Source of the DNA: Solirubrobacterales bacterium | GTDB lineage: Bacteria; Actinomycetota; Thermoleophilia; Solirubrobacterales; 70-9 | Reading direction: 5' to 3' | DNA length: 64,000 nt | Assembly (NCBI GenBank): GCA_020438395.1 | Contig: JAGQUR010000018.1 | Span: 42,186-106,185, forward strand | Translations under genes and position numbers: made by a program | Shown: piece by piece, positions 12,705 to 51,888 of the stretch | How the letters are laid out: each line of letters starts with the position of its first letter | Position numbering within the stretch: position 1 is the stretch's first letter | Notes under the pieces: generated by a model | What the model saw: only the letters and a program-made list of their open reading frames with translations | Databases searched by the model: none | Told to the model about the DNA's origin: nothing

Positions 12705-12855
12705 ACCCCGATCAAGGTCCCGCCCGCCCGGGTTCTCAACTGCTCTGAAGCGAGATTGAAATCAAGTGCAAATAGCGCTCTCCATTTCAACCTCGCTTAC
12801 ACGGAGCAACGGGGCATCTGCTCTGTGGCTGCTGGAAGTAGAATCGTCGTCGCGT

Positions 12856-12931
<76 letters not shown>

Positions 12932-13006: not shown

Positions 13007-13090
13007 GCGAAGCCTTGCGAAGCCCCGCGAAGAAGTTTCCAAAGGGCATAGTGCGAAAGTGGTGAGAACTTTCTCACGAGTTCTCACGAC
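13007..13090. repeat. Helically phased short repeats at the left end of element A
   Basis: GCGAAG occurs at 13007, 13017 and 13027, exactly 10 bp apart, with a further copy at 12964. TTCTCACGAG and TTCTCACGAC follow in tandem at 13071-13090, and GTGAGAAC (13062-13069) with GTTCTCAC (13080-13087) forms an inverted repeat. CATAGTGCGA is also repeated at 12941 and 13047. Such phased arrays next to an att site suggest arm-type binding sites for a recombinase or its accessory factor. No gene fits in 12930-13153. Confidence 0.5.
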
Positions 13091-13153: not shown

Positions 13154-16015
13154 TTGGAAGTCGAGGTCACAGCCAAGAGGGTCGCTGAGATTCTCCTTAC
13201 GCCTGCCGGAAGGCCCCTTCCGGCAGGCGTACTCGAGGACCTCTCCCGTGCTGGAGATGAGCTCATGAGTTCCTTGGGTCGTCCGGGCAAGGGCGGCAGG
13301 AAGCCCAGACGTCCGGCCGGTAGTGAAACGTCGGCGATGGCCGAAGTCAGGAAGCAGCTCGGCGAGTCGGTAATCCGAAGTCACAAGGGAGCGCGTGTCG
13401 AGATTTGGGAGCTCGACGAAACTGGCACTACCGTCATCGGGGCGAGACTCTCCTCAGAAGACATCGGCAAGGGCCAGAACATCATGGGTCAGATCAAGGG
13501 CGGGTTCGATCTCTGCGGCGACCTGGGATTGAAGGTCAGGTATGTGGTGGCGGCGACAAGGATGTCGGGTGACCGCCCGCAAGCCGATCGCATGGACCTG
13601 GAGTTCATTCGAAAGTGGATTCACGCTGGCCACATCGACACCGTTGTCTACCGAGAGGTTGACCGGATGGGTCGACGGTCCGGCGTTCGAGACGAATTCT
13701 GGAGGTTCCTCGAAGAGACGGGGACGGAACTCTATTTCTCAACCAAGGGTCGCCCAACAGACTGGGACGAGGATGGTCTTACGCTTGCCGTTGAAGGGGG
13801 AATGGCCGACCATGAGCGCCGCAAGATCGTCAGGCGTACCGGTGGGGGCATCAGACAGAACCTGCTGGACGTTGGTTGGGGCTGGCCAGGATGCGTTCGT
13901 TTTGGATTCAAACGGATCGACGGCAACGCCATAGTAGTCGACCCAAAGCAATGGAAATTCGTTCAAATGGCATTCGAGAGCTACGCGAAAGTAGGCCCGA
14001 CCGGTCGTGGAAGCATAAGCCGGCTCAGGACCCACATGGTGAAGCAAGGCTGTCGGATCTCTGAAGAGGGACTTAGAAAAATGCTCAGAGATGAGATCTA
14101 TGTGACCGGCAAGTGGGGGGTCACGGTCCTGGACGAGTACTACGAAGGCAATCGAATCGAGATCCCGAACCCCATCTCAGCTGAACTCCAGGCCAGGAAC
14201 ATTGCTCTGTTGGAAAGCACAAAGGGCCGTAACAGTATTACGCCCTTCGGTACATACCTTCTGAACACGATTCCCGTCTATCACGGTAGGTGCATGCAGA
14301 TCGAAGTTGAGCGCAAGCAGCCTCGATCGGGGAAAATCAAGAGAGTGACCCCCCAACTGCGGGGGAGAGGGTACGGCGACGATAGACGTGCGGATCGTCC
14401 TCCGACCTACTCTCACTATCCGAAGACCCCCAAGTGTTGCTCAAGATATTCGGTTCCGGCGGAACTGCTTGAGAGGACCGTAGTCGACTCGTTGCTTTCC
14501 CTGGCTGAATCTCGGGAACTCCAGCTTGCCTACATCCAGAAGGCATCCGAGGACGACTCGTGGGACATTCAGATTGAAGACCCACAGGCGTTAGATCGGG
14601 AGATTCAGGCGCTGACCAGAGGCAGGCGGGAAATCGTTTCGGATTTCAACGAGGAAATCCGGGGAGGAGACACGTCTGCGAAGTTTCGCGTGGCCAAGCT
14701 CCTGGACGGTATTGACGAAGACATTGCGGCTCTGACTCGCCGGAAGGAAATCGCGCTGAGTTCAAGGCCTGGTCCCGAGGAGCGGGATTCGAAAAGTTTG
14801 CGTGCCGATCTGAGGAGATGCTTGACGGCCGGGCCAGGGGATCCCGATCACCTGCGTCAGAAAAAGGTCGCGTTGATTGAAGCCTTGGTCAGCAAAGTGG
14901 TGGTACACGATTCGGATCAGGGCGGTTACGAAGTCGAGATCTTCGGTCACCTGATTCCGCCCGGCAGCCGAATCGTCCCTGAGGAGATCTCAGGCCATTT
15001 CGAGAATGCGCTCGACGAGATTCACAAACCGGCCACTAAGTCGAAACTTAGTGGCCGGTTTGTGACTGGGTGCGGAGAGCAGACGAACCACACTCCAGCT
15101 TGGCGCTCTGAGCGGGTTTTCGTGCGCGAAGTGCCGTACGAATACACACTAGATTCCGTCAAGAAGTCGATCAGATTTGCTCATGAGAAACTCCCTCCAG
15201 GACGCATGTTCGGGCGTGGATCTTCACCGTATGAGCGGCTTCGGATCGAGCACCCGGGGCTCCTCAGGACCGCGCAGATCGCGATTGTGTGTCGGAAACG
15301 CGGCACTACAAGGGATCAGGTGATCCGGTCTGCCATCGATGTCGAGCCGGGGCTCCGCGAAGGCCGCTTTGGACCTCGATCAGTAGAAGAGGTTAGGACA
15401 ACAATCCGTTGGGCACTTGAGGACGGAATGACGTTGGATCCGGGGTGGGCAATGCGGTGGGACTCGTTCGCTCGAAAACTCCCCTACTTGGAAACCTACT
15501 CGTGGCTAGGTCAAATTCTCCGGGAGAACGGCACTTCGCTAAAGCGTGTGGCGTTTGAGATCAAAGCTAAGCGGAGGGTCGGGCAGCCTCGAATCGTCTC
15601 AGGCGTTCCTGCCGGCGACCCGCCCAAGACTGATCGGGCAATCCTCGTTCACGCGCTGTCGTCCGAGGAACTGGTGCCATTTGGGTACGACCGCGGCAAG
15701 CTGATCTTGCTGAGGCAGAAGAGGCGACTCTTTCGCCTGAAGATCGAGAAGGATCAGAACTTCTACTACCCCAAGTGGCAGTTCTCAACGGAGATGGGCC
15801 CTCGCTCGATCGTGCCTGAAATTCTCGCGATCCTCGGTGCATTGGGTCTTGACGAATGGGATCTGGAGGGCGTCATGTCCGAAAGCTCCGAGTTCGGAGG
15901 GAAAACTCGCAGCCTCAGGGAGCTAGTCGATGAGGAGGCCTCTGCCGAATGGTTGATAGCTCAAATCAAGTACAGACTTGAGGTCAGAAGGAGAAACAAG
16001 CTAGACGGCAGCTGA
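13154..16015 (+). CDS. Large serine recombinase with unusual 320-residue C-terminal extension
   Basis: Up to 953 residues (TTG 13154; ATG 13265 is an alternative). Resolvase-type catalytic domain: GARLSSED (nucleophile serine at about 100), VDRMGRRSG, then GGMADHERRKIVRRTGGG and the Recombinase domain; a degenerate zinc-ribbon region (GRCMQI...CCSRY), a coiled coil near 480-560, and the usual end VSKVVVHDSDQGGYEVEIFG at about 590-610. This would normally be the terminus. The frame continues through a perfect hairpin into an extension whose last 80 residues (YPKWQF...GALGLDEWDL...LRELVDEEASAEWLIA) resemble the toxin-binding domain of Xre/MbcA/ParS antitoxins. It directs site-specific DNA integration or excision; it sits beside the attL at tRNA-Pro. 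Confidence 0.87.
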   Translation: MEVEVTAKRVAEILLTPAGRPLPAGVLEDLSRAGDELMSSLGRPGKGGRKPRRPAGSETSAMAEVRKQLGESVIRSHKGARVEIWELDETGTTVIGARLSSEDIGKGQNIMGQIKGGFDLCGDLGLKVRYVVAATRMSGDRPQADRMDLEFIRKWIHAGHIDTVVYREVDRMGRRSGVRDEFWRFLEETGTELYFSTKGRPTDWDEDGLTLAVEGGMADHERRKIVRRTGGGIRQNLLDVGWGWPGCVRFGFKRIDGNAIVVDPKQWKFVQMAFESYAKVGPTGRGSISRLRTHMVKQGCRISEEGLRKMLRDEIYVTGKWGVTVLDEYYEGNRIEIPNPISAELQARNIALLESTKGRNSITPFGTYLLNTIPVYHGRCMQIEVERKQPRSGKIKRVTPQLRGRGYGDDRRADRPPTYSHYPKTPKCCSRYSVPAELLERTVVDSLLSLAESRELQLAYIQKASEDDSWDIQIEDPQALDREIQALTRGRREIVSDFNEEIRGGDTSAKFRVAKLLDGIDEDIAALTRRKEIALSSRPGPEERDSKSLRADLRRCLTAGPGDPDHLRQKKVALIEALVSKVVVHDSDQGGYEVEIFGHLIPPGSRIVPEEISGHFENALDEIHKPATKSKLSGRFVTGCGEQTNHTPAWRSERVFVREVPYEYTLDSVKKSIRFAHEKLPPGRMFGRGSSPYERLRIEHPGLLRTAQIAIVCRKRGTTRDQVIRSAIDVEPGLREGRFGPRSVEEVRTTIRWALEDGMTLDPGWAMRWDSFARKLPYLETYSWLGQILRENGTSLKRVAFEIKAKRRVGQPRIVSGVPAGDPPKTDRAILVHALSSEELVPFGYDRGKLILLRQKRRLFRLKIEKDQNFYYPKWQFSTEMGPRSIVPEILAILGALGLDEWDLEGVMSESSEFGGKTRSLRELVDEEASAEWLIAQIKYRLEVRRRNKLDGS
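13198..13231. repeat. Perfect 16-bp inverted repeat at the recombinase gene start
   Basis: TACGCCTGCCGGAAGG (13198-13213) and its exact reverse complement (13216-13231) are separated by two bases. It lies between the TTG start at 13154 and the ATG at 13265. If translation begins at the ATG, the palindrome is in the leader and could be an operator or a translation-blocking hairpin; if TTG is used, it is coding. Confidence 0.6.
15022..15065. repeat. 20-bp perfect hairpin inside the recombinase reading frame
   Basis: Arms 15022-15041 and 15046-15065 are exactly complementary around the 4-nt loop CGAA. This has the form of a strong intrinsic-terminator stem without a T run. It falls at codons 623-637, exactly where canonical large serine recombinases end, and the frame stays open through it. 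Confidence 0.8.
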
Positions 16016-16098: not shown

Positions 16099-18488
16099 TT
16101 AGGCTTCTCGCGCCAAGGCTTGGCAGCGATTCAGCACTTGGCGAAGTGGCTCAGTTATCCGGTTGGTTCGTCTCATCTCGGCGGCGAGTTCGCCAAGCGT
16201 CTTCTCGTCCACAGTGACTTCAAACCATTTCCTCCAGTAGTTCTTCCACTCACCTTGATGTGCTTCGCGGGCTTCGACTTTCTCGGCGAATCTCTCCCGT
16301 GCGTCGTTGTGACCCGGGAACTTGGGGAAGCGCTCCTTGATTACTTCCTCATCGATCAAGTCGAACACGTCGTATCCCGGCGAATCGACACCTACCGGCT
16401 CAATTGTTCGGGCAAGCCTGTTGGATTCGTGAACCAGTTTGGCGACCGTACCCGGCTCGCGTGCGCCTGCCTTGCGAGCCTCCTCCTCCGCAATCTTGGG
16501 ATTGGAAGTCACGGCCTCGACGTAGCTGCTGTTGATCCCGTCGAGCCAAACCGCGATCTTCGCGTTGCTGAATCGCAGTAGGGAAGTCTCAAGGACGGCT
16601 TTGGCTTTGGCGTGGCTGTATCCCTGCATTGGAATGACCAAGATTCCGGATTCGCGAAGCTCCGACGGAAAAGCGTTCTCCAACACCGCCCGATCCATTT
16701 CTCCTTCGACCCAAAGAACCACGCTAGTCAACGCCAGGAGCTCTCCACGATCAAGACCCAACTCTTCTGCCGCGACTCCCATTTCGGTCAGTTCCCCAGG
16801 GTCGATTGACCCAAAGTGCGTTGGGGAATTGCCTTCGCGCAGGAGGTACGTGTACTTGGTTTCTCCTCTTATCCCCATGAACGGCACGGAATGAGTCGCA
16901 ACCATGACCTGAATCCCGTTGGAGACGGTGCTGCCGAGCCAACTGGCCATCTCTCGCTGGAGTTTTGGATGGAGAAACCTCTCAGGTTCATCGATTAGAA
17001 GCAGGACTCCCCGAGTTAGCTCCGCGGCATCAGTCTCTGACGTTTCACCGTCACTGTCGAGAAACCAGAGTTCATTGCTCGCCCTAACCGTCAAGCCGCG
17101 ATCGGAGTTACGGACCATTGGGAGAGTGTCCTCAAGTGCTTCCCTGAGGTTGCGGACCCGCTGTGTCTCTTCAATATCGTCAAACCAGGTTCCAGACAAC
17201 CAGGATCTCAGGTGCTCATTCGTCACTGCCAGATCGGAGGCGACCAATTGAATCGCGTTGACGGCGTAAAGGATTGAAATGTTGACCCACAACCTGAACC
17301 CTTCAGCCATCCGATCTATCTGGATAGCTCCACGGTCAGAGCCAATTGTGCGGTCGGTGAAGAACTCCGGATCGACAGGCTCAACTTCGAACCTCAGTTT
17401 GCTCTCAGCCCATTTCTCGGGATGGTTGACCCGAATACGAATCCTGTAGCGGCGGGAAATGGACTCTGGGAGAACATCCGCGATCATTCTCTCCAACTTC
17501 CGGCACAAAGTCGGGACATCCTTCGAGAGGGCCCAATCATCTTGGCCGTTGCTCGTGACCCACGGGTCGGGTACCAAGTCTTCGATGGATTCCTCAAGTG
17601 GATCCTCGTTCTGAGTCATCAGGATGTCGGCCCACCGCAACTGGGCGACACAGTCGGCTACCGCAAGTTCCGTGCGCTCAAGAACCTCAGAATTCCCGCG
17701 CGGATACAGCGGCTTGGGGACCAGAGTCATGTTCGTTTGGCCTATGGGCGCCAACACGACGGGTCCCTGCAAGTGATCACGTTGGCCACTTGTGGAGAGG
17801 CTTATGAACGACTTCGCACGTAAATTGCCCCTTGCGGCCCATTCGGCACCTAGAACTCCGGAACGTTTGAGAGCTTCCGCTATCTGAGGTGGGGTTGCGA
17901 CGACCGGCGGCAGACAGAGCAGGAGATTCCAACCGCGAACCTCTACAAAGCCCGTATTGATTGCGGTTGGCTCGAACCCGACTAGGAATCTTCCAGTTTC
18001 CGCGGACTCAGTTTGAAGGAAGTCGATGACCTGTAGCCAAGATTCTTGATGGGGACCCGTGTACGCCGACCGGATTTGGTCTAGCCACTGTTCGGTCAGG
18101 TCCTCATTGGAAGAAAACTCGACGTCCTCGATGTCATGGGCTGTCAGTCCGCTTTCATTCGCCCACCATGTCTCGCGATGGCGACGAGCCTCTTTCCGGT
18201 AGGAGTACCGGCTTTGCGATGGGATTTCGTCCAGCAGATCTGAAATCCCGGTCTGAGGATCTCGTCGAACCGATCCGGTTCTACGTCGACGAAAACGATC
18301 CCATTCAGTCCATCCGAACCACTCAGCAGATCGTGAACGCAGTTGAGAAGTGTGCTCTTCCCACTATCGTTTCGGCCAAGTATTCCCGTGAAATCGTCAA
18401 CGGGAAGGTGCCCCGCTTCAATGGGCCTAGGACCGGTACCGGCGATGAGCCTGGTGCCTCCGTGGAGCGTGACGCCGACGACCTTCAT
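16099..18488 (-). pseudogene. OLD-like AAA ATPase / TOPRIM nuclease, frameshifted
   Basis: The start (ATG 18488) gives an AAA N-terminus with Walker A GRNDSGKST about 40 residues in. That frame stops at 18144. The adjacent frame is open from before 18240 to 16099: it encodes DLLDEIPSQSRYSYRKEA..., a second ATPase half with LLLIDEPERFLHP (Walker B) and VATHS, then the TOPRIM motif VVLWVEGEMD. Joining the two near 18240 needs a single -1 shift, consistent with one lost base. Restored length is about 795 residues, normal for class 1 OLD-family proteins, which act in anti-phage defence as ATP-regulated nucleases. No UvrD-like partner is adjacent, so it is not a Gabija pair. A sequencing error or programmed frameshift cannot be excluded. 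Confidence 0.8.
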
Positions 18489-30913: not shown

Positions 30914-33724
30914 ATGAGCGAAACCCGTGAGCCAGACTATGACCTGAACCCTGAACAAAGGGCTCGGCGCCGGATTGATGCTCTCTTGAGTGATGCGGGC
31001 TGGGATCTTCAGGACTTCAAGAAGATGGACTTGTCCAAGCCGTACGTTGCAGTGCGCGAGTACCAACTCCCGGGCGGTCCGGTGGACTATTTGCTTTACG
31101 TGGACAGAAAGGCGATCGGCACAGTTGAGGCCAAGAAGGAGGGGGAGACTCTGCGGCCCGTCGAATGGCAAGCCAGCCGGTACGCGCAAGCTTTCAGCGA
31201 CAAGGCAGAGAAGGAGGCGATCCCGAACTTCGGCTTTCCACTGCCAGTCAGCTACATCTCTACGGGTACGGAGACGCTATTCGAGAACCGAACTGAACCG
31301 AACCACCGGCCCCGGGAAGTCTTTGCCTTCCATCGCGGCGAATTCCTGTCTGAGGTTGTTCGGATGGGATCGATCCGCTCCGGAGTGTTCGAGCTTCCGC
31401 ATCTTGCCAAACAAGACCTTCGTGATTGCCAAGTGGATGCGATCATCGGACTGGAAGACTCCCTTCGAGCGAACAGGCCTCGTGCGCTGGTTGAGATGGC
31501 CACAGGTGGAGGAAAGACGATCGCGGCAATCGCGCACGCGTACCGGCTACTTCGATGGGCTGAAGCCAAACGCATCTTGTTCCTGGTTGATAGAAGAAAT
31601 CTAGGTATTCAGGCCAAGAGAGACTTTGAGAACTGGGTGACACCGGATGATGGTCGGAAACTGAGCGAACTCTTCCCGGTTCACCTCCTGACCTCGAACA
31701 CGATCCCGGAATCGGCAAGCGTGGTCATCACGACCATTCAGCGACTCCGGTCAATGCTGAAGGGCGAGGAAGCCTTCGACGGGGAGAACGAAGACTTCTC
31801 CGGGTGGGAGCTCGCTGGCTTGGCTTCTGAACCCACACCAATTCAGTATCGGCCCGAGGTTCCGATTGAGACCTTTGACTACATCTTCATCGACGAATGC
31901 CATCGATCCATCTACGGTCCGATGGGGCAGGTGCTCGACTATTTTGATGCCTTCCAGATCGGCCTGACGGCAACGCCGTCCAGGGTCACTTACGGATACT
32001 TCTCCAAGAACGTCCTCGGCGAGGGGGAGACCGAACCGAACGTTGTCTCCCAGTATCCCTACGAAGAATCTGTGCTTGACGGAGTCAACGTGGGCTACGT
32101 CGTCTACCGGATCCGTACACGGATCACCGAAGGTGGCGGACATCTAGAAGCCGGTGAGTGGGTTGACCTCAGAGACAAGAACACTCGGGCTCGAGACCCG
32201 CACCAACTCGACGAGGATTTTGATTTCACTGAAAAGGATCTGAACGCAGCGATCGTTGTCAAAGATCAGATCCGCACGATCGTCCGTGCGTTCAAGGATG
32301 CAATGCCGATGCTCTTCCCGGGCCGAACGACAGTGCCGAAGACGGCAGTCTTCTGCAAGGACGAGAGCCACGCGGAGGATGTTCTGGAGATAGTCCGCGA
32401 GGAGTTTGGCCAAGGGTCAGAGTTCGCAAAGAAAATCACCTACAAGACCGAAGGATCCTCCGAACAGGCCATTCAGGACTTCCGCACGGACCCTAGATTC
32501 CGCATCGCTGTGACGGTGGACCAGATCTCAACTGGCACTGACATCAAGTCGATCGAATGCCTGCTGTTTCTCCGCAAGGTCAAGAGCCGTCTCCTCTTTG
32601 AACAGATGAGAGGAAGAGGAGTCCGAACCATAGATCCCAACGACCTTGCCGCGGTTACTCCAGACGCCGGCGCTAAGGACCAGTTCGTGCTCGTAGATGC
32701 TGTCGGCGTTACCGATGACGAAACCGTCTGGGCGGTTTCGCCACCTTTGGACCGTGAACCATCAGTGCCGCTGGAGAAGCTGCTTCAGTCTCTGGCTCAG
32801 GGGTCCACGGACGAAGCACTCCTGAAAAGCATCTCGGCGCGATTGCTCCGGCTGGACAAGCGAATGGAGGATCCCGACCGCGAGGCGATTACCCAGCAGC
32901 TAGACGGTCAATCACTCGTGGAACTCGCGCGAACTCTGGTCGACGCAACCAACCCGGACGAGTGGCATGAGCGAGCGGCACATGATCACGGAGGCGAACC
33001 AAGCGAAGAGCAAATCCAGCTAGCGAGACAGGACCTGGCGCTGACGGCGACATCCCCTCTCTTGTCGGCCGAGACTCGGGAAGCGATTCTCGCGATCAAC
33101 GTGAAAACCCACCAGGTGATCGACCGGCAAAGTCAGGACGAGGTTCTGTCGGCTGACCTGATCACCGAGGACATTGCAGAATCCACGATTGAAACCTGGG
33201 AAGAGTTCGTGCGCGACCACAAGGACGAATACCTGGCTTTGGCGATTCATTATTCCCAACCCCAAACAAGAAGACTCAGTCTCTCTGACGTTCGTGAACT
33301 AGCAAAAGCGATCAGCCTCCCGCCGAGAAGCCTCACCCCGGAAAGGATCTGGGGAGCGTACGAGCGACTCGACAAGAACAGAGTCAAGGGATCAGGCTTC
33401 AAGAACCTGGTTGACCTCGTCTCTCTAGTGCGGTTCACGGCAGAGCAAAACGACGACCTGACCCCACACGCCGACGCCGTCAGACTACGTTACAGCCTCT
33501 GGCTGACAGAGCAAGAAAGCGACGGACGGACGTTCACCGCTGAACAACGTCGCTGGTTGGACATGTTCTGCCATCAGATCGCGACGTCACTCGAAGTCAG
33601 GAAAGACGACTTCGACGATCCCCCGTTCGCTCAGGAAGGCGGCATCTTCCACGCTTCCGAGATATTTGGCAGCGATCTGGACGATTTGATCGAGGAACTC
33701 AACCGGGAGCTAGCGATCGTATGA
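30914..33724 (+). CDS. hsdR: Type I restriction endonuclease, R subunit
   Basis: 936 residues. The N-terminal nuclease domain shows VDYLLYVDRK followed by GTVEAKKEG (Asp and Glu-x-Lys of the PD-(D/E)xK site, residues 56-75). A superfamily 2 helicase follows: motif I MATGGGKT near 196, motif II IDECHRS (DECH box), LTATPS, and later motifs STGTDIKSIECLLFLR and EQMRGRGVR. A C-terminal HsdR/EcoEI-like helical region completes it. It uses ATP to translocate DNA and cut unmethylated DNA with HsdM and HsdS. Overlaps hsdS by ATGA. All main motifs are intact. Confidence 0.94.
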   Translation: MSETREPDYDLNPEQRARRRIDALLSDAGWDLQDFKKMDLSKPYVAVREYQLPGGPVDYLLYVDRKAIGTVEAKKEGETLRPVEWQASRYAQAFSDKAEKEAIPNFGFPLPVSYISTGTETLFENRTEPNHRPREVFAFHRGEFLSEVVRMGSIRSGVFELPHLAKQDLRDCQVDAIIGLEDSLRANRPRALVEMATGGGKTIAAIAHAYRLLRWAEAKRILFLVDRRNLGIQAKRDFENWVTPDDGRKLSELFPVHLLTSNTIPESASVVITTIQRLRSMLKGEEAFDGENEDFSGWELAGLASEPTPIQYRPEVPIETFDYIFIDECHRSIYGPMGQVLDYFDAFQIGLTATPSRVTYGYFSKNVLGEGETEPNVVSQYPYEESVLDGVNVGYVVYRIRTRITEGGGHLEAGEWVDLRDKNTRARDPHQLDEDFDFTEKDLNAAIVVKDQIRTIVRAFKDAMPMLFPGRTTVPKTAVFCKDESHAEDVLEIVREEFGQGSEFAKKITYKTEGSSEQAIQDFRTDPRFRIAVTVDQISTGTDIKSIECLLFLRKVKSRLLFEQMRGRGVRTIDPNDLAAVTPDAGAKDQFVLVDAVGVTDDETVWAVSPPLDREPSVPLEKLLQSLAQGSTDEALLKSISARLLRLDKRMEDPDREAITQQLDGQSLVELARTLVDATNPDEWHERAAHDHGGEPSEEQIQLARQDLALTATSPLLSAETREAILAINVKTHQVIDRQSQDEVLSADLITEDIAESTIETWEEFVRDHKDEYLALAIHYSQPQTRRLSLSDVRELAKAISLPPRSLTPERIWGAYERLDKNRVKGSGFKNLVDLVSLVRFTAEQNDDLTPHADAVRLRYSLWLTEQESDGRTFTAEQRRWLDMFCHQIATSLEVRKDDFDDPPFAQEGGIFHASEIFGSDLDDLIEELNRELAIV

Positions 33725-34953
33725 GCGTCACAGTTGAGGCTCCACTAGGCTGGTCGTGGCGAACGATCGGGGAACTCGGCGAATACCACAACGGCAGGGC
33801 GTTCAAGAAGGATGAGTGGGAACTAGAGGGGCGGCCGATTATCCGCATCCAGAATCTCACCGATCCAAGCAAACCGTTCAATTACTTCAGTGGTAAAGCA
33901 GATGCTCGACACGAGGTGTCGGATGGTGACCTCCTCATCTCGTGGGCAGCAACTCTGGGGGTCTTCCGCTGGAGTGGTGGAGATGCGGTCTTGAACCAGC
34001 ATATTTTCAAAGTCCAGAGTTCGCATGACAACGACTTTCTCTACTGGCTGCTGAAAGCGGCCGTAGGTGAGATGTACGGTAGAAGCCAGGGATCCGGAAT
34101 GGTGCATATCCGCCGCGGCGAGTTGAAAAGTCTTCCGGTCCTTGTGCCTGACTCAAGAGACCTTGAGCATCAAGTGGTTTCAGTGATCGAGGCCGAGTTC
34201 AGCAGGATCGACTCGATCGAGTCCGAGCTTGCCGAGGTTGACCGACTCTCAGGTCAGTTCCGCGCGGCGGTCCTACGGGACGCGTTCATTGGCCGTCTGG
34301 CAGCTGAAGCGCACGGGGCGGGCCGTGGCCCGAGTGTAGTTCCTCAGGCTTGGGAAGTTCGGCAGCTTGGCGATATCGCCGATGTGCGGTCCGGTATCAC
34401 CAAGAATTCAAAGCTCGCAACTGGGGACGAGGTCCCGTACATGTCCACGGCCAATGTGCAGGCCGGATACCTCCGGCTTGACAATGTGAAGACGATTCTC
34501 GCCAGCAAGGAGCAGCAGGAGAAGCACCGGCTGGAGGTTGGAGACGTGCTCGTGCTTGAGGGTGGAGACCCCGACAAGGTCGGTCGTGGCTGGGTCTGGA
34601 ACGGAGAGATCGAAGGCTGTCTCCACCAGAATCACGTTTTTGCGGTCAGGCCAGATTCGCGAGTTCTCCTGCCGGAGTATCTGGCCTGCTACGTGAATGC
34701 GCCGCAGGCGCGAGTCGCATTCCTGGCTCGCGCAAAGCAGACAACGGGTATCGCGTCAATCAACAAGACGCAACTCAGGGAGTTATCGATACCCCTGCCC
34801 GGAGTTGACAAGCAGTTTGCAATAGTGGAGGCGATCAAGGCCGCCAACTCGGCGATTGAGGTTGCTGCAGACGACGCTCGGGTCGCGCGGGAGGGCCTCA
34901 AGAAGGCGCGGTCGTCTGTTCTCCACCAGGCCTTTACTGGTGGGCTCGTCTGA
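33721..34953 (+). CDS. hsdS: Type I restriction-modification specificity subunit
   Basis: 410 residues with two target-recognition domains, each opening with a W-x-x-x-x-L/I-G-E/D pattern: WSWRTIGELGEYHNG at the start and WEVRQLGDIADVRSG near 217. Each is followed by a conserved helical spacer (SELAEVDRLSGQFRAAVLRDAF after the first, ARVAREGLKKARSSVLHQAF after the second). Determines the bipartite recognition sequence for methylation and cleavage. Starts inside the hsdR stop. A 91-bp gap with a strong GGGAGGA site precedes hsdM. Confidence 0.93.
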   Translation: MSVTVEAPLGWSWRTIGELGEYHNGRAFKKDEWELEGRPIIRIQNLTDPSKPFNYFSGKADARHEVSDGDLLISWAATLGVFRWSGGDAVLNQHIFKVQSSHDNDFLYWLLKAAVGEMYGRSQGSGMVHIRRGELKSLPVLVPDSRDLEHQVVSVIEAEFSRIDSIESELAEVDRLSGQFRAAVLRDAFIGRLAAEAHGAGRGPSVVPQAWEVRQLGDIADVRSGITKNSKLATGDEVPYMSTANVQAGYLRLDNVKTILASKEQQEKHRLEVGDVLVLEGGDPDKVGRGWVWNGEIEGCLHQNHVFAVRPDSRVLLPEYLACYVNAPQARVAFLARAKQTTGIASINKTQLRELSIPLPGVDKQFAIVEAIKAANSAIEVAADDARVAREGLKKARSSVLHQAFTGGLV

Positions 34954-35044
34954 CGTGTCCTCGAGGACCTAGAGCAATGCCAGACTTGCGACATCGAACC
35001 CGTCGAAGAGTGAAACGCGACGTGAGCCCCGTGCGGGAGGAACT

Positions 35045-36589
35045 ATGACTAGAACAATTTCGGCCGAATCCAAAGCCCTGACCCAAAAGCTCTGGAGTTA
35101 CTGCAATGTTCTTCGTGACGACGGTTTGAGCTATGGCGACTACCTGGAGCAACTCACGTACCTCTTGTTTCTCAAGATGGCCCATGAGCGAACCCAGCCT
35201 CCGCTAAGCGAAGAGTCAAAAATACCCGAGGGTGTTGATTGGCCATCGCTGGAGGCTTTGGCGGGTCCGGACCTCGAAGCTCACTACGTGAAGGTTTTGG
35301 CCACGTTAGGAAGTGAGCCGGGTCTTCTCGGTCTGATCTTTCGTAAGGCCCAGAACCGGATCTCAGATCCGGCCAAGCTCCGTCACCTAATTGTGGATCT
35401 CATCGGCGAGGAGACTTGGTCAGGGCTTGACGCGGACCTAAAGGGCGACTTCTACGAGGACCTTCTTGAGCGGACCGCGTCGGACACCAAAGCGGGAGCC
35501 GGTCAATATTTCACTCCGCGTTCGGTGATCAAGGCGATGGTCGATTGTGTCCAGCCCGAACCCGGGCAGACGATGAGCGATCCTGCCTGTGGGACCGGCG
35601 GATTCCTTCTGGCTTTCTATGACTACGTGATCGACAACTTTGAGTTAGACCGCGATCAGAAGCGGCAGTTGGCTGACGACGACATCCACGGCAATGAACT
35701 CGTGGACAACACCGCCCGCCTTTGCGCGATGAACTTGTTTCTTCACGGGATCGGGCACCTGTCTAGGGACGAAACACCTGCAATCACAGTCTCAGATGCA
35801 CTCGCAGTCGAACCGAACAACAAAGTGGACGTCGTTCTTGCGAATCCTCCATTCGGTAAGCATTCTTCCACGGTCATTGACTCTGAGATTCTCGTAGACG
35901 AGGAGGGGAACTCAAGAGCTCGCCAGACGAAGGGCGACCTCGCCATCTCGCGGCCCGACTTCTGGGTTTCCACTTCGAACAAGCAGCTGAATTTCGTCCA
36001 GCACATCCGTTCGATGTTGAAGATTGGCGGAACCGCAGCGGTGGTAGTGCCTGACAACGTTCTCTTCGAAGGGTCAAGCTCAAACTCCGCGGGCGGGAAA
36101 CTCCGGGAGCGTCTGCTGTATGAGTGCAACCTCCACACAATCCTTCGACTTCCAACGGGAATCTTCTACGCGCAGGGAGTCAAAGCGAACGTGATCTTTT
36201 TCGATCGCCACGCCGGTTCGGAAGAGGCCGCAACGAAGGAAACCTGGGTTTACGACTTCCGGACGAATCAGCACTTCACTCTCAAGACGAAGGCCATGCG
36301 TCGAGAACATCTCGATGGGTTCGTGGAAGCTTTCAAACCAGGGCAGCGACTCTCTGCGCGAGAGGAAGTTGCGGGGTTCAAGCGCTACAAATTTGAAGAG
36401 ATCGCCGAACGTCCCGGATACAACCTCGATCTTTGGGCCGACATAGCGGACGAATCGATCGAAGATCCGGCGCTGCTGCCAGCACCAGCCGTGATCGCCG
36501 AAGAAATCACCGAGCGGCTCGCCGCTGCGCTCGACGCATCGAAGGAGTTGGCATCGAGCCTTGCTTCGCGGGACTCATTTGGCGAGTAG
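35045..36589 (+). CDS. hsdM: Type I restriction-modification methylase subunit
   Basis: 514 residues. An HsdM N-terminal helical domain (LTQKLWSYCNVLRDDGLSYGDYLEQ) is followed by an N6-adenine methyltransferase: AGQYFTPRSVIKAMVD, motif I DPACGTGGFL at about 179 and catalytic NPPF at about 267. Methylates adenines in the HsdS target, protecting host DNA. The operon order R-S-M is less common than R-M-S or M-S-R. Start ATG 35045 has GGGAGGA seven bases upstream. Confidence 0.95.
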   Translation: MTRTISAESKALTQKLWSYCNVLRDDGLSYGDYLEQLTYLLFLKMAHERTQPPLSEESKIPEGVDWPSLEALAGPDLEAHYVKVLATLGSEPGLLGLIFRKAQNRISDPAKLRHLIVDLIGEETWSGLDADLKGDFYEDLLERTASDTKAGAGQYFTPRSVIKAMVDCVQPEPGQTMSDPACGTGGFLLAFYDYVIDNFELDRDQKRQLADDDIHGNELVDNTARLCAMNLFLHGIGHLSRDETPAITVSDALAVEPNNKVDVVLANPPFGKHSSTVIDSEILVDEEGNSRARQTKGDLAISRPDFWVSTSNKQLNFVQHIRSMLKIGGTAAVVVPDNVLFEGSSSNSAGGKLRERLLYECNLHTILRLPTGIFYAQGVKANVIFFDRHAGSEEAATKETWVYDFRTNQHFTLKTKAMRREHLDGFVEAFKPGQRLSAREEVAGFKRYKFEEIAERPGYNLDLWADIADESIEDPALLPAPAVIAEEITERLAAALDASKELASSLASRDSFGE

Positions 36590-38661: not shown

Positions 38662-38693
38662 ACCATTGAGAAATTTTCTTGAGAAAGGAATTC

Positions 38694-40034
38694 ATGTCCA
38701 AGTCAGACAAGAACAGGTTTAGGCCGGTTCCCGGGCACCCTGGCATCTATCGGCGCGTTATGAAAGATGGATCCATGCGCTGGGGTGTCAAGGCATACGA
38801 CCCGACGAAAGAGAGAACACAGGCGACGGGGTTGCCTCCCAAGTTTGGGGCTACCGTTTGGATCGGGACCTTCGATTCCCGTGCCGAGGCCAAGGCCGCA
38901 AAGCGAGCTTTCGAGGAGAAAGCCAAGAGTTCGGGCTTCAGGAAAGCTGGCCGTACGACTGTTGCCCAGTACGCGTCGCGGTGGCCAGAAATCCACCCGA
39001 AGGATCGGTCCGAGTCGACGCTTCGAACCTATCGCGAGGGCGTGAAGCGTTTCGTTGAGCGATTCGGAGAAGTTCTGGTTCGCGACCTGGATCGTTCTGA
39101 GTGCGTCGCATGGGCGGAATCAGAGCCGGATTGGTCCGTGAACGCGGCGAGAATCATGCTGGCGGACATGAGAGACATGGATTACCTGATCGCTTTCAAC
39201 CCTCTCGAAAAGCTGGGACGGACAAGGTCGCGTGGCCGCAAAGGTTGGCCGGTGCTGGGTGATTCAGAAGTAGAGGGCCTCATTGACACTGCGCAGTCAA
39301 TTTTCGTTCCGGAAGTAGGGAAGCCCATAGCTGGCCTGATCGCTACAAGCGCCTACTTGGGGCTCAGAAAGTCTGAAGCCGTAGCGCTTTCATCTGAATG
39401 TGTAGACCCAGTCGGCCGTCGAGTTCTCGTCGATCTCCAGGTTGGGAAGAAGCGAGTTGCGAGGGACCCCAAAACAGGCGAGCGGGTAATCGTCCTCACT
39501 TCGCAAGCGATCGAAGCGTGGTCGCGCCTAGATGCCAAGAGCGGATCGGGGCCGATGTTTCCCATGGACGACGGGCAGTATTGGGAGACATCCAATCTGT
39601 ACGACCGATGGGTGCAAGTTGCAGCAGCGAGTGGGATCCCGGGGCTGCAATTCCATGAGCTCCGTCGCTACCACGCGACGTGGTTGGACAAACAGGGAAT
39701 AGATCTCTGGGCCATAGCGGTTCAGCTTGGTCATGGGGTTTCCGGTCACGAAACCACTCAGGGATACATCGAAAAGAGAAACAACGCTCTTGAGCACATT
39801 GATGCAGCACTGGCGGAAAAAACGAAGCCGCTCGAACTACAGGGACGCGCTGAATTCAGACCGCCACGACTGCGACAAGTCGATTCAGTGGAAATGCCCA
39901 ATCGGAACCTGACCGACAAGTCCAGCGGGCTGAGAGCCCAACGCACGAAGCTCCTGCAAGACGCGAGAAGCAAGAGCGATCGTGAGATAGTTCGTGAAAA
40001 CAAGACCGAGGAAGGCAGTGGTGATCAGGAATGA
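38694..40034 (+). CDS. Tyrosine recombinase / integrase
   Basis: 446 residues from ATG 38694 (MSKSDKNRF), preceded by GAAAGGA; TTG 38679 is an alternative. Arm-binding N-terminus, SAM-like core-binding domain (TVAQYASRWPEIHP...STLRTYREGVKRFVERFG), and a catalytic domain with all hallmarks: Arg in AYLGLRKSEAVAL (about 224), HELRR (about 321-325), His in LGHGVSG (about 347) and nucleophile Tyr in TTQGYIEK (about 357). Catalyses integration and excision by strand exchange. The stop codon overlaps the att-like sequence at 40031, the standard layout for integrases targeting tRNA genes. An extra 90-residue basic C-terminal tail is present. Confidence 0.95.
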   Translation: MSKSDKNRFRPVPGHPGIYRRVMKDGSMRWGVKAYDPTKERTQATGLPPKFGATVWIGTFDSRAEAKAAKRAFEEKAKSSGFRKAGRTTVAQYASRWPEIHPKDRSESTLRTYREGVKRFVERFGEVLVRDLDRSECVAWAESEPDWSVNAARIMLADMRDMDYLIAFNPLEKLGRTRSRGRKGWPVLGDSEVEGLIDTAQSIFVPEVGKPIAGLIATSAYLGLRKSEAVALSSECVDPVGRRVLVDLQVGKKRVARDPKTGERVIVLTSQAIEAWSRLDAKSGSGPMFPMDDGQYWETSNLYDRWVQVAAASGIPGLQFHELRRYHATWLDKQGIDLWAIAVQLGHGVSGHETTQGYIEKRNNALEHIDAALAEKTKPLELQGRAEFRPPRLRQVDSVEMPNRNLTDKSSGLRAQRTKLLQDARSKSDREIVRENKTEEGSGDQE

Positions 40035-48328: not shown

Positions 48329-48664
48329 ATGACAGAGTTGGCAGAGCGACTCAAGTTCTCGAGCGAACAAGCGGCTTTGGATCAGTCTGATTTGGCTCGG
48401 TTGCTAGACACAGATCCTCGGACCATCGGTCGATGGTTGCAGCAGGAGTCGTCTCCGAGACCGGACGCAAGAGAGCGTTTGCTCGAACTGATCGCAGTTC
48501 TTGATCGACTCTCTGGCGTCCTGAAGCCTCAGGCCGCCCACGATTGGCTTCTCTCCCCGAATCCGGCTCTAGATCACTTCAAGCCGGTGGAGTTGCTTCG
48601 TGAAGGCGATTATCGGACAGTCTTGGGTGCGATCGACGCCATGGGCGAAGGCGTCTTTCTGTAG
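48329..48664 (+). CDS. Xre/MbcA/ParS-type antitoxin of RES toxin pair
   Basis: 111 residues. An N-terminal HTH (LDQSDLARLLDTDPRTIGRWLQQ) is followed by the C-terminal toxin-binding domain: LKPQAAHDWLLSPNPALDHF, then KPVELLREGDYRTVLGAID. It neutralises the RES toxin encoded 5 bp downstream and probably represses the operon. Organisation, order and sizes are typical of Xre-RES modules. Confidence 0.88.
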   Translation: MTELAERLKFSSEQAALDQSDLARLLDTDPRTIGRWLQQESSPRPDARERLLELIAVLDRLSGVLKPQAAHDWLLSPNPALDHFKPVELLREGDYRTVLGAIDAMGEGVFL

Positions 48665-48669
48665 CCAGC

Positions 48670-49203
48670 TTGGACTCGAACCGAATATTCGAGGCTCTCG
48701 ACGCACTCGGCCAGGAGTCTTTCTCCGGGAGCGCGTTCCGCCATGTTGCCCAGAATCGCCATCCGCTCTCTGGTGCTGGCGCAAGAACTATGGGCGGCCG
48801 CTGGAACCCGCGCAATAGCTTTTCGACGCTCTACCTGGGGCTTTCGAGAGAGGTGGTGGAACTTGAGTTCGCGCGCATGGCAACGAAACAAGGTCGCGAT
48901 CCCCAAGACTTCCTGCCAAGGAGTTTCGTCGAATACGAAGTCAAGCTCGGGAAGATCGTCGACCTTCGGCTGCAGGAGACCCGAGAAAGTATCGGTCTGC
49001 CACCAGCGCAAGTTTCAGAATTGCCAATATCGGATTGCCAGGCCGTCGGGGAAGCAAGCCAGCACCTTGGGTTCGAGGGAATCCTCGCCCCGTCAGCGGC
49101 CGGGGAGGGCCTGGTGCTCGCAGTCTTCATGGACCGACTGGCGGGCGATTCAAGGATCGACATCGTTCGGACCGAAGTCATCTCTGATTTGGGGCGAGGT
49201 TAG
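48670..49203 (+). CDS. RES-domain toxin
   Basis: 177 residues with a TTG start 5 bp after the antitoxin stop. The RES signature is clear: FRHVAQNRHPLSGAGARTMG, GRWNPRNSFSTLYLGLSREV and ELEFAR supply the conserved Arg, Tyr and Glu of the NAD+-binding site. RES toxins degrade or phosphorolyse NAD+ or ADP-ribosylate targets, arresting growth. Full length, no disruption. It stabilises element B by addiction and may act in abortive defence. Confidence 0.9.
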   Translation: MDSNRIFEALDALGQESFSGSAFRHVAQNRHPLSGAGARTMGGRWNPRNSFSTLYLGLSREVVELEFARMATKQGRDPQDFLPRSFVEYEVKLGKIVDLRLQETRESIGLPPAQVSELPISDCQAVGEASQHLGFEGILAPSAAGEGLVLAVFMDRLAGDSRIDIVRTEVISDLGRG

Positions 49204-49299: not shown

Positions 49300-51888
49300 A
49301 TGAGTTCACGAATGCGGTCATTCGTGGCTCGCAAGAGAGCTCAGGCTCTGACGTCCTCCTTCCTGAAAGCACTCCAAGAACGGCGCTGGGAGGAGGCTTC
49401 GGTAGCGGGTGAAGAGCTGATAGCCCGTATGGAGAGTTTGGGAGAGACGCAGTTGAATGTCAAAGTGAAGATCGAGACGGCGCGATCCTTCTTAAATTGG
49501 AACGCTGGCTCCGTCGGGGATCGAGTATCCAGGTCCAAAGCTCTCTTGGATGAGGTATTGGATGCTGATCCTCAACCAATTCGAGCTGCCGAGGCCCACT
49601 GTCTGATGGCCGCCGCTCACGGACTCACCCCAGGCGACCGATCGGCCAACACCGAAAAGGCGCTTGCATCATTGGAAGAAGCGGAGAAGAAACTCACTGG
49701 CCTAGATGGAGAGGAAGCCGATCATCTTAGATCGCAGATCCGAACGAATCGATCTCACGCGACGCTCACGACCGACGGCGGCGATGCCGATGACAAACGC
49801 GATCTCGCGCTGGAGGAGGCCAAAGCGGGATTAGAAGGACAAGATCCGAGGAGAGATTCAGACGGCTGGGCCATCGCTCAGATCAATCTTGGTTCTGCAC
49901 AAGAGAACCTCATGATTAGAGGCGATTTTCAGCCACAGGAAGTCGCGGAAACATACGAACTGGTTCGAACCAATGCGCGGAAATTGGATTCGCCTTGGTA
50001 CGGGGCTTTCGCGGCCCTTGGAACCACCCGAGTAATACACCGAGCGATCGCGATGGGTGATCCAACAGAGGCGCGAGCACTGACGCTCATGTGGATGGAG
50101 GAAGTATGCCTGGATGCTCTGGACATAGCCACTGAAGAACATCCTGAAGTCCGGGGTCGTTTGCTTCGAAGGCTCGGAGAGATCCTGTGGGACATGGGAG
50201 ATCTCAATAGAGCAAAATTGCGTCTAGCCGAGGCGCTAGAACTCCTCACTCTGGATTGGCCGGACCGAAGGCTTCACGCGGCCAAGTGTCTGGCGGCCGT
50301 ATCCGAGAAAGATGGTGATCTCGAAGGTGCGGTGGAGGCCTATCGCATTGCGATCGAAGCTTCCGAGCTTTCACACGACTCAAGAATTCAGAGTCTGGGG
50401 CGTCAAGCGGAGGCGAACGCGGACGGAAAATTGTACCGATGGGCTTCGGGGGCAATGTTGCGATTCGGTCTTCTAGAAGAAGCCGCGATCACTCTCGAGA
50501 AAGGTCTCGCGAGAGAGTTTGGGACTAGAGCACGGTTCTCGGAGGCCGCAAGTATTGAGATGCCAGGCGTTCCGGCAGAGCTTGTGAGCCAGATGAGAAT
50601 TCACGCGCGGCAATTGAGCGCGGAAGGGCTTTCAGAGGGTGCTTCAGGTGCCGCTGTCGGGTTCTATGAGTGTCGTGAGGCGATCCGGGCCTACCCAGGC
50701 TATGAACGGTTTGGCCTTCCGGTGACCAGCGAGGACCTAGCAGCCAGCGTCCAGCCAGGTTGGCCTGTTGTGTATGTGAACCCTGTGCCAAGTGGTCTTT
50801 CCATCATCTTGATCGATGAGGCGGGCATACGCGGGTCATTCTCAGAAAAAGTTGATTCCGAAGAGATAGAGCGATTCCTCCTCGAAGGTGATGTAGCGCA
50901 CGGGACGGTTTCTTACGTCGGCAACGTCTTGGGAGTTCCGGGTCCAGGAAGCGTGCGTTCCGCCCTTGAACTCGTTCTCCCTTGGATCGGGGAGAGAGTA
51001 ATAAGGCCGTTGGTCGCGTTTCTAGGGGAACGAGAACAGGTCGGGTTATCCCTCATTCCCTGTGGCTGGTTGCCCCTTGTTCCGTTGCAGGCCGCCCATT
51101 TTGAGCATGATGGTCAGGAGCTCAGCCTCCTAGATCTCTATCCCACGCGATTTTCTCCCTCCGGGAAAATGCTGGCGAGCAGCCTAGAACGCTCAGAAAG
51201 CAATTCCGTCATGACCAACGTTGTGGCTCTGGGAAATCCCGATGGAACCCTGCCAGTAACCGAGGCCGAATGTGAAACAGCGTCAGAGACCCTGGGTGCG
51301 GGAGAAACCGCTTTGGGCGACGAAGCTTCGATGGGTTTCTTTCGAACGCAAGCTCCCAGCGCTGACTTACTCCACATTGGATGCCATGCGGAAGCGAGTC
51401 TTCTCAGATTCAGCGAGACCGGTATCCGCCTTCACGATGGGGTCATATTTGCCAATGAGGTGGTGGCCATGCCCCTCAAAGCTAGGCTGGCGGTCGCGTC
51501 CGCATGCCAAACTGCTGTCCCAGAAAAAATTAGAGCGTCGGATGAGTCGTTCTCATTCGCCAGTTGTTTGATGGCCGCGGGGGCAAGATGCGTAGTCGCG
51601 AGTCACTGGCGAGTCAACGACATCGCAGCGGGAATCCTGATGGTTCGTTTTTATAACGACCCGGATGTCCTCAATGAGCCGGCGGTCGCTCTCCAACGCG
51701 CACATCTCTGGATGCGAGACTTGTCCGATAGTCAATTAGAACACTTCCTGGACGCGCATCCGACTCTCCATTCCAAGATCAAGGAAGCTCTAGATCGTGC
51801 TGCCGTGAAGGGCCACCCTTTCTCGGTCAACGCCGAATGGCTATCTCACCCGCACAAGTGGGCAGGATTCGCAACATTCGGTTCCTAG
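49300..51888 (+). CDS. TPR-CHAT caspase-like protein
   Basis: 862 residues. Residues 1-480 are helical, TPR-like repeats (LEEAEKKLTGLDGEEA..., AKLRLAEALELLTLDW, EGAVEAYRIAIEAS). The C-terminal 300 residues form a CHAT domain: DLLHIGCHAEA provides the catalytic His (about 695) and AVASACQTAV the catalytic Cys (about 735), with SFASCLMAAGARCVVASHWRVND following. CHAT proteins are caspase-fold proteases or scaffolds. TPR-CHAT is the architecture of the craspase protease partner, but no gRAMP effector or CRISPR array is present. It lies 96 bp after the RES toxin, same strand, and may be read with it. Confidence 0.88.
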   Translation: MSSRMRSFVARKRAQALTSSFLKALQERRWEEASVAGEELIARMESLGETQLNVKVKIETARSFLNWNAGSVGDRVSRSKALLDEVLDADPQPIRAAEAHCLMAAAHGLTPGDRSANTEKALASLEEAEKKLTGLDGEEADHLRSQIRTNRSHATLTTDGGDADDKRDLALEEAKAGLEGQDPRRDSDGWAIAQINLGSAQENLMIRGDFQPQEVAETYELVRTNARKLDSPWYGAFAALGTTRVIHRAIAMGDPTEARALTLMWMEEVCLDALDIATEEHPEVRGRLLRRLGEILWDMGDLNRAKLRLAEALELLTLDWPDRRLHAAKCLAAVSEKDGDLEGAVEAYRIAIEASELSHDSRIQSLGRQAEANADGKLYRWASGAMLRFGLLEEAAITLEKGLAREFGTRARFSEAASIEMPGVPAELVSQMRIHARQLSAEGLSEGASGAAVGFYECREAIRAYPGYERFGLPVTSEDLAASVQPGWPVVYVNPVPSGLSIILIDEAGIRGSFSEKVDSEEIERFLLEGDVAHGTVSYVGNVLGVPGPGSVRSALELVLPWIGERVIRPLVAFLGEREQVGLSLIPCGWLPLVPLQAAHFEHDGQELSLLDLYPTRFSPSGKMLASSLERSESNSVMTNVVALGNPDGTLPVTEAECETASETLGAGETALGDEASMGFFRTQAPSADLLHIGCHAEASLLRFSETGIRLHDGVIFANEVVAMPLKARLAVASACQTAVPEKIRASDESFSFASCLMAAGARCVVASHWRVNDIAAGILMVRFYNDPDVLNEPAVALQRAHLWMRDLSDSQLEHFLDAHPTLHSKIKEALDRAAVKGHPFSVNAEWLSHPHKWAGFATFGS

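What the first reader, a model, noticed from the sequence alone, without database searches (positions are those of the whole stretch)
15022..15065. Recombinase reading frame runs through a terminator-like hairpin into an extra domain
A perfect 20-bp stem with a 4-nt loop sits exactly where the canonical large serine recombinase domain ends, and the frame continues for another 315 residues. This looks like a fossil gene boundary: a stop was lost and the former terminator is now coding, fusing the recombinase to a downstream protein.
Basis: partly seen in the sequence, partly recalled or inferred. Interest (0 to 1): 0.6.

Follow-up and report, generated by a model that had tools for sequence, protein, structure and literature searches.

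The report
Terminator hairpin trapped inside fused recombinase
In a draft actinobacterial genome, the gene for a DNA-integrating enzyme reads straight through a perfect hairpin of the kind that elsewhere in that genome marks the ends of genes, and continues into a second protein whose last third resembles a toxin's antidote, so two former neighbour genes have probably been welded into one.

Summary
The hairpin is real: window 15022-15065, a 20/20 perfect stem with loop CGAA (-35.5 kcal/mol). It is unique in the genome and in 232 genomes of the order, so it is not a dispersed palindrome. The frame is open from ATG 13265 (TTG 13154) to 16015.

A control made here bears on the reading. In 854 kb of the same genome, 17 of 18 perfect hairpins with stems of 12 bp or more lie within 65 nt of the 3' end of a predicted gene (zone = 6.7% of bases). 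The window hairpin sits about 950 nt before its stop but only about 24 nt after homology to the nearest near-full-length relative ends (residue 615). None of 13 recombinase relatives carries the 316-residue C-part. Its last third is related to antitoxin-like proteins; three of the five relatives are genes directly upstream of RES-domain toxin genes.

So the hairpin most likely is a former transcription terminator left inside a recombinase-antitoxin-like gene fusion. Not shown: the lost stop, termination activity, or an unfused sister locus. The middle of the protein (about 195 aa) matches nothing. A draft-assembly indel error remains possible. First-stage reading: plausible and partly supported, not proven.

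The parts
12855..12930 (+). tRNA-Pro (TGG); G+C falls from about 0.63 to 0.57 just downstream, the left border of the island
   Evidence: ARAGORN; composition. A recombinase relative in another Solirubrobacterales genome also follows a tRNA-Pro (L023)
13062..13087 (+). short perfect hairpin (9-bp stem, 8-nt loop) in the leader between tRNA and recombinase
13198..13231 (+). second perfect hairpin, 16-bp stem with 2-nt loop, 33 nt upstream of ATG 13265
13265..16015 (+). fused open reading frame; ATG 13265 with GGAG 8 nt upstream is the likely start (the frame is open from TTG 13154)
   Evidence: a relative has an aligned GTG with GGGAGGAG upstream at the same place
13280..14998 (+). large serine recombinase part: resolvase domain 13442-13858 (PF00239); homology to the Conexibacter relative covers residues 43-615
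15022..15065 (+). perfect 20-bp hairpin inside the frame, read as a former terminator
15065..15649 (+). C-part, first about 195 codons: coding by length and codon-position bias, no relatives found
15662..15928 (+). C-part, last third: Xre/MbcA/ParS-like antitoxin region (winged HTH plus C-terminal segment), related to genes directly upstream of RES toxins

Best explanation
The locus is a gene fusion. A large serine recombinase gene, sitting just inside a genomic island next to tRNA-Pro, originally ended about where homology to its relatives ends, with a long GC-cored hairpin terminator just behind it, as is the rule in this genome. Downstream lay a second gene whose product ended in an Xre/MbcA/ParS-like (RES-antitoxin type) region. 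A stop-removing change (point mutation, small indel or short deletion) joined the frames, so the hairpin now encodes the linker IHKPATKSKLSGRFV. Expected behaviour (inferred): translating ribosomes follow the polymerase and keep the hairpin from forming, so full-length fusion protein is made; if the hairpin does stop transcription, the message lacks an in-frame stop and the product would be tagged and degraded. Shown: hairpin, open frame, end of recombinase homology, relatedness of the last third, 3'-end habit of such hairpins. Inferred: that this hairpin terminated transcription, that a stop was lost, that the fusion is recent (20/20 pairs still intact), and any function of the C-part.
For: Hairpin 20/20 bp. 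Within 854 kb of the same genome, 17 of 18 perfect stems >=12 bp and 12 of 12 >=13 bp lie within 65 nt of the 3' end of a predicted gene, a zone making up 6.7% of bases; the two 18-bp examples lie 5-24 nt from stop codons. Relative L010 (Conexibacter sp. S30A1) aligns over residues 43-615 and then diverges; none of 13 recombinase relatives carries the C-part. The C-part's last third matches separate proteins at E 5e-4 to 4e-7; three of these (L004, L027, L028) are immediately followed by PF08808 RES toxins and two score PF23125 at 1.6e-4 and 2.6e-4. In L027 and L028 a tyrosine integrase gene lies directly upstream of that antitoxin gene, so the order integrase - antitoxin exists. Both halves have the same codon-position bias. 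The hairpin is unique, not a repeat.
Against: No locus with the two parts as separate adjacent genes, and none with the same fusion, was found. The first 195 residues of the C-part have no relatives, so most of the supposed second gene is unidentified. No U-run follows the full stem. No strong independent start for the C-part lies just after the hairpin (GTG 15122 has only a weak GAGCGGG before it). The island is AT-richer than the host, so the host's terminator habit may not apply to it; the 16-bp hairpin at 13198 is a second one in the island that is not behind a known gene end. No RES toxin follows 16015.
Confidence: 0.6

Rival explanations
1. Native multidomain recombinase: the C-part belongs to this recombinase subfamily, and the palindrome arose later inside a linker, for example by a fold-back template switch that copied one arm from the other.
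For: Both parts are in one frame with the same codon-position bias. The nearest near-full-length relative also has a C-terminal tail of about 96 residues past the common end, though unrelated in sequence. The hairpin has no dispersed copies, as expected of a local event.
Against: No relative has the C-part. The hairpin sits where recombinase homology ends and has the shape (A-rich foot, GC core, T-rich foot) of several of the genome's 3'-end hairpins.
Confidence: 0.18
2. Assembly or sequencing error: a one-base indel or a misjoin in this 86%-complete draft bin hides the recombinase stop, and there are really two genes.
For: Read from 14961 (frame +1) the sequence ends in TGA at 15063-15065, exactly at the end of the hairpin; frame +2 has TGA at 14980 and TAA inside the stem (sequence). 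Draft of 194 contigs.
Against: The C-part stays open for 316 codons in the very frame of the recombinase; short-read contigs rarely carry single-base indels (general knowledge; the read type is not known here). No reads were available.
Confidence: 0.12
3. The hairpin is a working internal element of an intact fused gene: an attenuator deciding between short and long products, or a palindromic operator for the fused winged-helix region.
For: Stem energy -35.5 kcal/mol with all pairs intact. All three perfect hairpins (stem >=9 bp) of the 64-kb window cluster at this gene. Xre-RES complexes bind a palindromic repeat in their promoter (PMC12204516).
Against: A transcript ending at 15065 would have no in-frame stop, so a short product would not be made cleanly. 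The three hairpins share no evident sequence. Operators normally lie in promoters, not about 1.8 kb into the gene.
Confidence: 0.07
4. The palindrome is an attachment or crossover site of the recombinase, and integration there joined the recombinase frame to a foreign gene end.
For: Serine integrase sites are short, partly palindromic and often lie next to the integrase gene (general knowledge).
Against: A perfect 20-bp palindrome with a 4-nt centre is unlike an attL or attR hybrid. The C-part has the island's G+C (0.57), not the host's 0.62-0.68. The G+C border lies at tRNA-Pro, 2 kb upstream.
Confidence: 0.03

Closest known systems
Large serine recombinases / serine integrases (phage integrase family PHROG 95; PF00239 N-terminal domain)
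   Same: Resolvase domain, conserved catalytic Ser and Arg residues, long region after it matching integrases; lies at the edge of an island
   Different: Strongly diverged; carries 316 further residues absent from all relatives found; intact relatives here have frames of 444-717 codons, one 860
Antitoxins of Xre-RES systems (Xre/MbcA/ParS-like, PF23125 / PF09722)
   Same: Last third of the C-part aligns with genes directly upstream of RES toxins, with the shared Y-P-x-W-Q motif
   Different: Here it is the tail of a recombinase, and no RES toxin gene follows
Engineered serine integrase - directionality factor fusions (PMC5737554)
   Same: A serine integrase continuous with a second DNA-binding or interacting protein
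   Different: Those are laboratory fusions with an RDF; nothing here shows that the C-part steers recombination
Intrinsic terminators with long stems and weak U-tracts
   Same: Stem length, GC core, short loop, position right behind a gene's end of homology
   Different: Lies inside an open frame about 950 nt before the stop codon

Membership tests
Large serine recombinase | N-terminal resolvase-type catalytic domain with nucleophilic serine and conserved arginines | tested here: met
   PF00239 E = 1.7e-10, above its cutoff; S100, R98, R141, R171, R174, E221, R222 invariant with two relatives
Large serine recombinase | long C-terminal DNA-binding region beyond the catalytic domain | tested here: met
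   PHROG 95 integrase match to residue 592; homology to L010 to residue 615; DNA binding itself not tested
Large serine recombinase | recombination between att sites | not testable with these tools
   no experiment; no long direct repeat of the tRNA end was found in the window
Intrinsic terminator | stable GC-rich stem-loop | tested here: met
Intrinsic terminator | U-tract directly after the stem | tested here: not met
   but long hairpins at gene ends in this genome also often lack a run of T
Intrinsic terminator | location just 3' of a gene | tested here: inconclusive
   about 24 nt past the end of recombinase homology, yet inside the open frame
Intrinsic terminator | stops transcription | not testable with these tools
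   no RNA data
Xre/MbcA/ParS-like antitoxin | sequence match to the family's middle and C-terminal domains | tested here: inconclusive
   no direct Pfam hit; linked through L027 and L028, which score PF23125 at 1.6e-4 and 2.6e-4, below the curated cutoff
Xre/MbcA/ParS-like antitoxin | adjacent RES toxin gene | tested here: not met
   none after 16015; next gene is an OLD-like ATPase on the other strand. Hence described as antitoxin-like, not filed as an antitoxin

The most novel reading that the evidence does not exclude
A natural serine recombinase carrying an RES-antitoxin-like, DNA- and protein-binding module in the same polypeptide, so that recombination is controlled by, or coupled to, a toxin-antitoxin-type partner, with a former terminator captured as the linker.
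Probability: 0.12. Interest if true: 0.65.

Novelty: new variant of a known kind. Interest (0 to 1): 0.4.

Why it matters
It would be a rare snapshot of gene fusion in bacteria in which the boundary mark, a terminator hairpin, is still intact inside the new coding sequence; the perfect stem would imply a recent event. It also points to a recombinase with an antitoxin-like tail, an arrangement for which the limited paper searches made here found no report, and gives a concrete test of whether translating ribosomes neutralise an in-frame terminator.

Tried and rejected
Dispersed palindromic element: rejected, single copy in the genome and none in 232 order genomes at up to 3 mismatches, none in viral contigs. 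Insertion of a mobile palindrome: 44 nt is not a multiple of 3 and no flanking target duplication is visible. Chance: rejected. Tandem repeat inside the first C-part stretch: not significant, 101 of 1000 shuffles reach it. Structure of the C-part: models too poor to use (pLDDT 34.6 and 58.9), so no fold search was made. PDB profile search of the last third: nothing meaningful. Phage and plasmid collections: no C-part, one weak recombinase match. Weak C-part matches L029-L033 (E 0.001-0.008; three have a stop inside) were treated as chance and, apart from a look at L030, not followed. A frame slip in my first translations was corrected. Gene prediction was a simple codon-usage script; it did not call the island's recombinase, so the window hairpin was placed by hand.

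Full report
Observation. The hairpin at 15022-15065 is exact: 20 of 20 pairs, loop CGAA, -35.5 kcal/mol, z = -11.9. The frame that carries a resolvase-type catalytic domain (PF00239) runs through it to a stop at 16013-16015. The likely start is ATG 13265, preceded by GGAG; a relative has an aligned GTG with a strong ribosome-binding sequence at the same spot. From ATG the protein has 916 residues, from TTG 13154 it has 953.

Where the recombinase ends. The integrase profile PHROG 95 matches to residue 592. The best near-full-length relative, in Conexibacter sp. S30A1 (L010/L025), aligns over residues 43-615 and then diverges. The hairpin starts at residue 623, about 24 nt further on. A second relative (L009/L023, a Solirubrobacteraceae bin) is broken by a transposase gene after about residue 320 and says nothing about the C-part. 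Eleven weaker relatives have frames of 444-717 codons. None of the 13 contains the C-part.

A control for "terminator-like". I took 854 kb of the same genome in 80 stretches, predicted genes by codon usage and listed all perfect hairpins with stems of at least 10 bp and loops of 2-8. Of 18 with stems of at least 12 bp, 17 lie at or within 65 nt of the 3' end of a predicted gene, a zone of about 6.7% of the bases. All 12 with stems of at least 13 bp do. The two longest (18 bp) lie between genes, 5-24 nt from stop codons. Many lack a run of T after the stem, so the missing U-tract at 15065 is not unusual here. The hairpin at 15022 is therefore of a kind that in this genome marks gene ends, yet it lies some 950 nt before the stop of its own frame. 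Limits: gene prediction was crude, a few hairpins counted as "near an end" lie inside another predicted gene, and the island has a different base composition from the host.

The C-part. Its 316 codons carry the same codon-position bias as the recombinase (G+C 0.60/0.46/0.66 against 0.60/0.45/0.67). The first ~195 residues match nothing. The last third (about residues 200-288 of P0001) matches separate genes in other actinobacterial genomes: L004, L005, L006, L027, L028. Three of these are immediately upstream of RES-domain toxin genes (PF08808, E 2e-8 to 2e-12), and two score the Xre-MbcA-ParS middle domain at 1.6e-4 and 2.6e-4, below its curated cutoff. In L027 and L028 a tyrosine integrase gene lies directly upstream of the antitoxin gene, so an integrase - antitoxin order exists elsewhere. 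No RES toxin follows the fused gene in the window.

Mechanism. The most economical account is loss of a boundary between two adjacent genes, with the terminator of the first now coding. In the other two frames the hairpin region holds stops (TAA at 15037-15039, TGA at 15063-15065), so either a lost in-frame stop or a small indel could have joined the frames. I cannot say which. Because all 20 pairs are intact although both arms are coding, the fusion is probably recent or the stem is still selected. Translation should mask the hairpin in the message; a transcript that did stop there would have no in-frame stop.

What is not settled. No sister locus in either state was found in the genome, phage, plasmid and viral collections searched. 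An indel error in this draft cannot be excluded without reads. Function of the C-part is unknown; coupling of recombination to an antitoxin-like module is a possibility only.

Noticed in passing
window 13062-13087 and 13198-13231: The only other perfect hairpins with stems of 9 bp or more in the 64-kb window both lie in the leader of the same recombinase gene; the 16-bp one is 33 nt upstream of its ATG.
   Followed up: partly
L023 7009-7137: A relative of the recombinase in another genome also sits downstream of a tRNA-Pro, with a perfect 15-bp hairpin 20 nt after the tRNA; that recombinase is interrupted by a transposase gene.
   Followed up: partly
window 48329-49203: A complete-looking Xre-type antitoxin (PF09722) and RES toxin (PF08808) pair, followed by a large gene with CHAT-like C-terminal part (49300-51888; the CHAT reading is by eye).
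   Followed up: partly
window 13000-40034: Low-G+C island with an OLD-like ATPase (16099-17772), type I restriction genes (30914-36589, by eye) and a tyrosine recombinase at its right part (38679-40034): a second integrase besides the serine recombinase.
   Followed up: partly
L027 1420-3265 and L028 1-2334: In two other actinobacterial genomes an antitoxin-like gene and a RES toxin gene lie directly behind a tyrosine integrase gene.
   Followed up: partly
G000 contigs, one search list: Several gene-end hairpins in this genome share an AAAGGGCCCCGG-type arm and flanks like TCCTTAA, possibly a common terminator type of the lineage.
   Followed up: no
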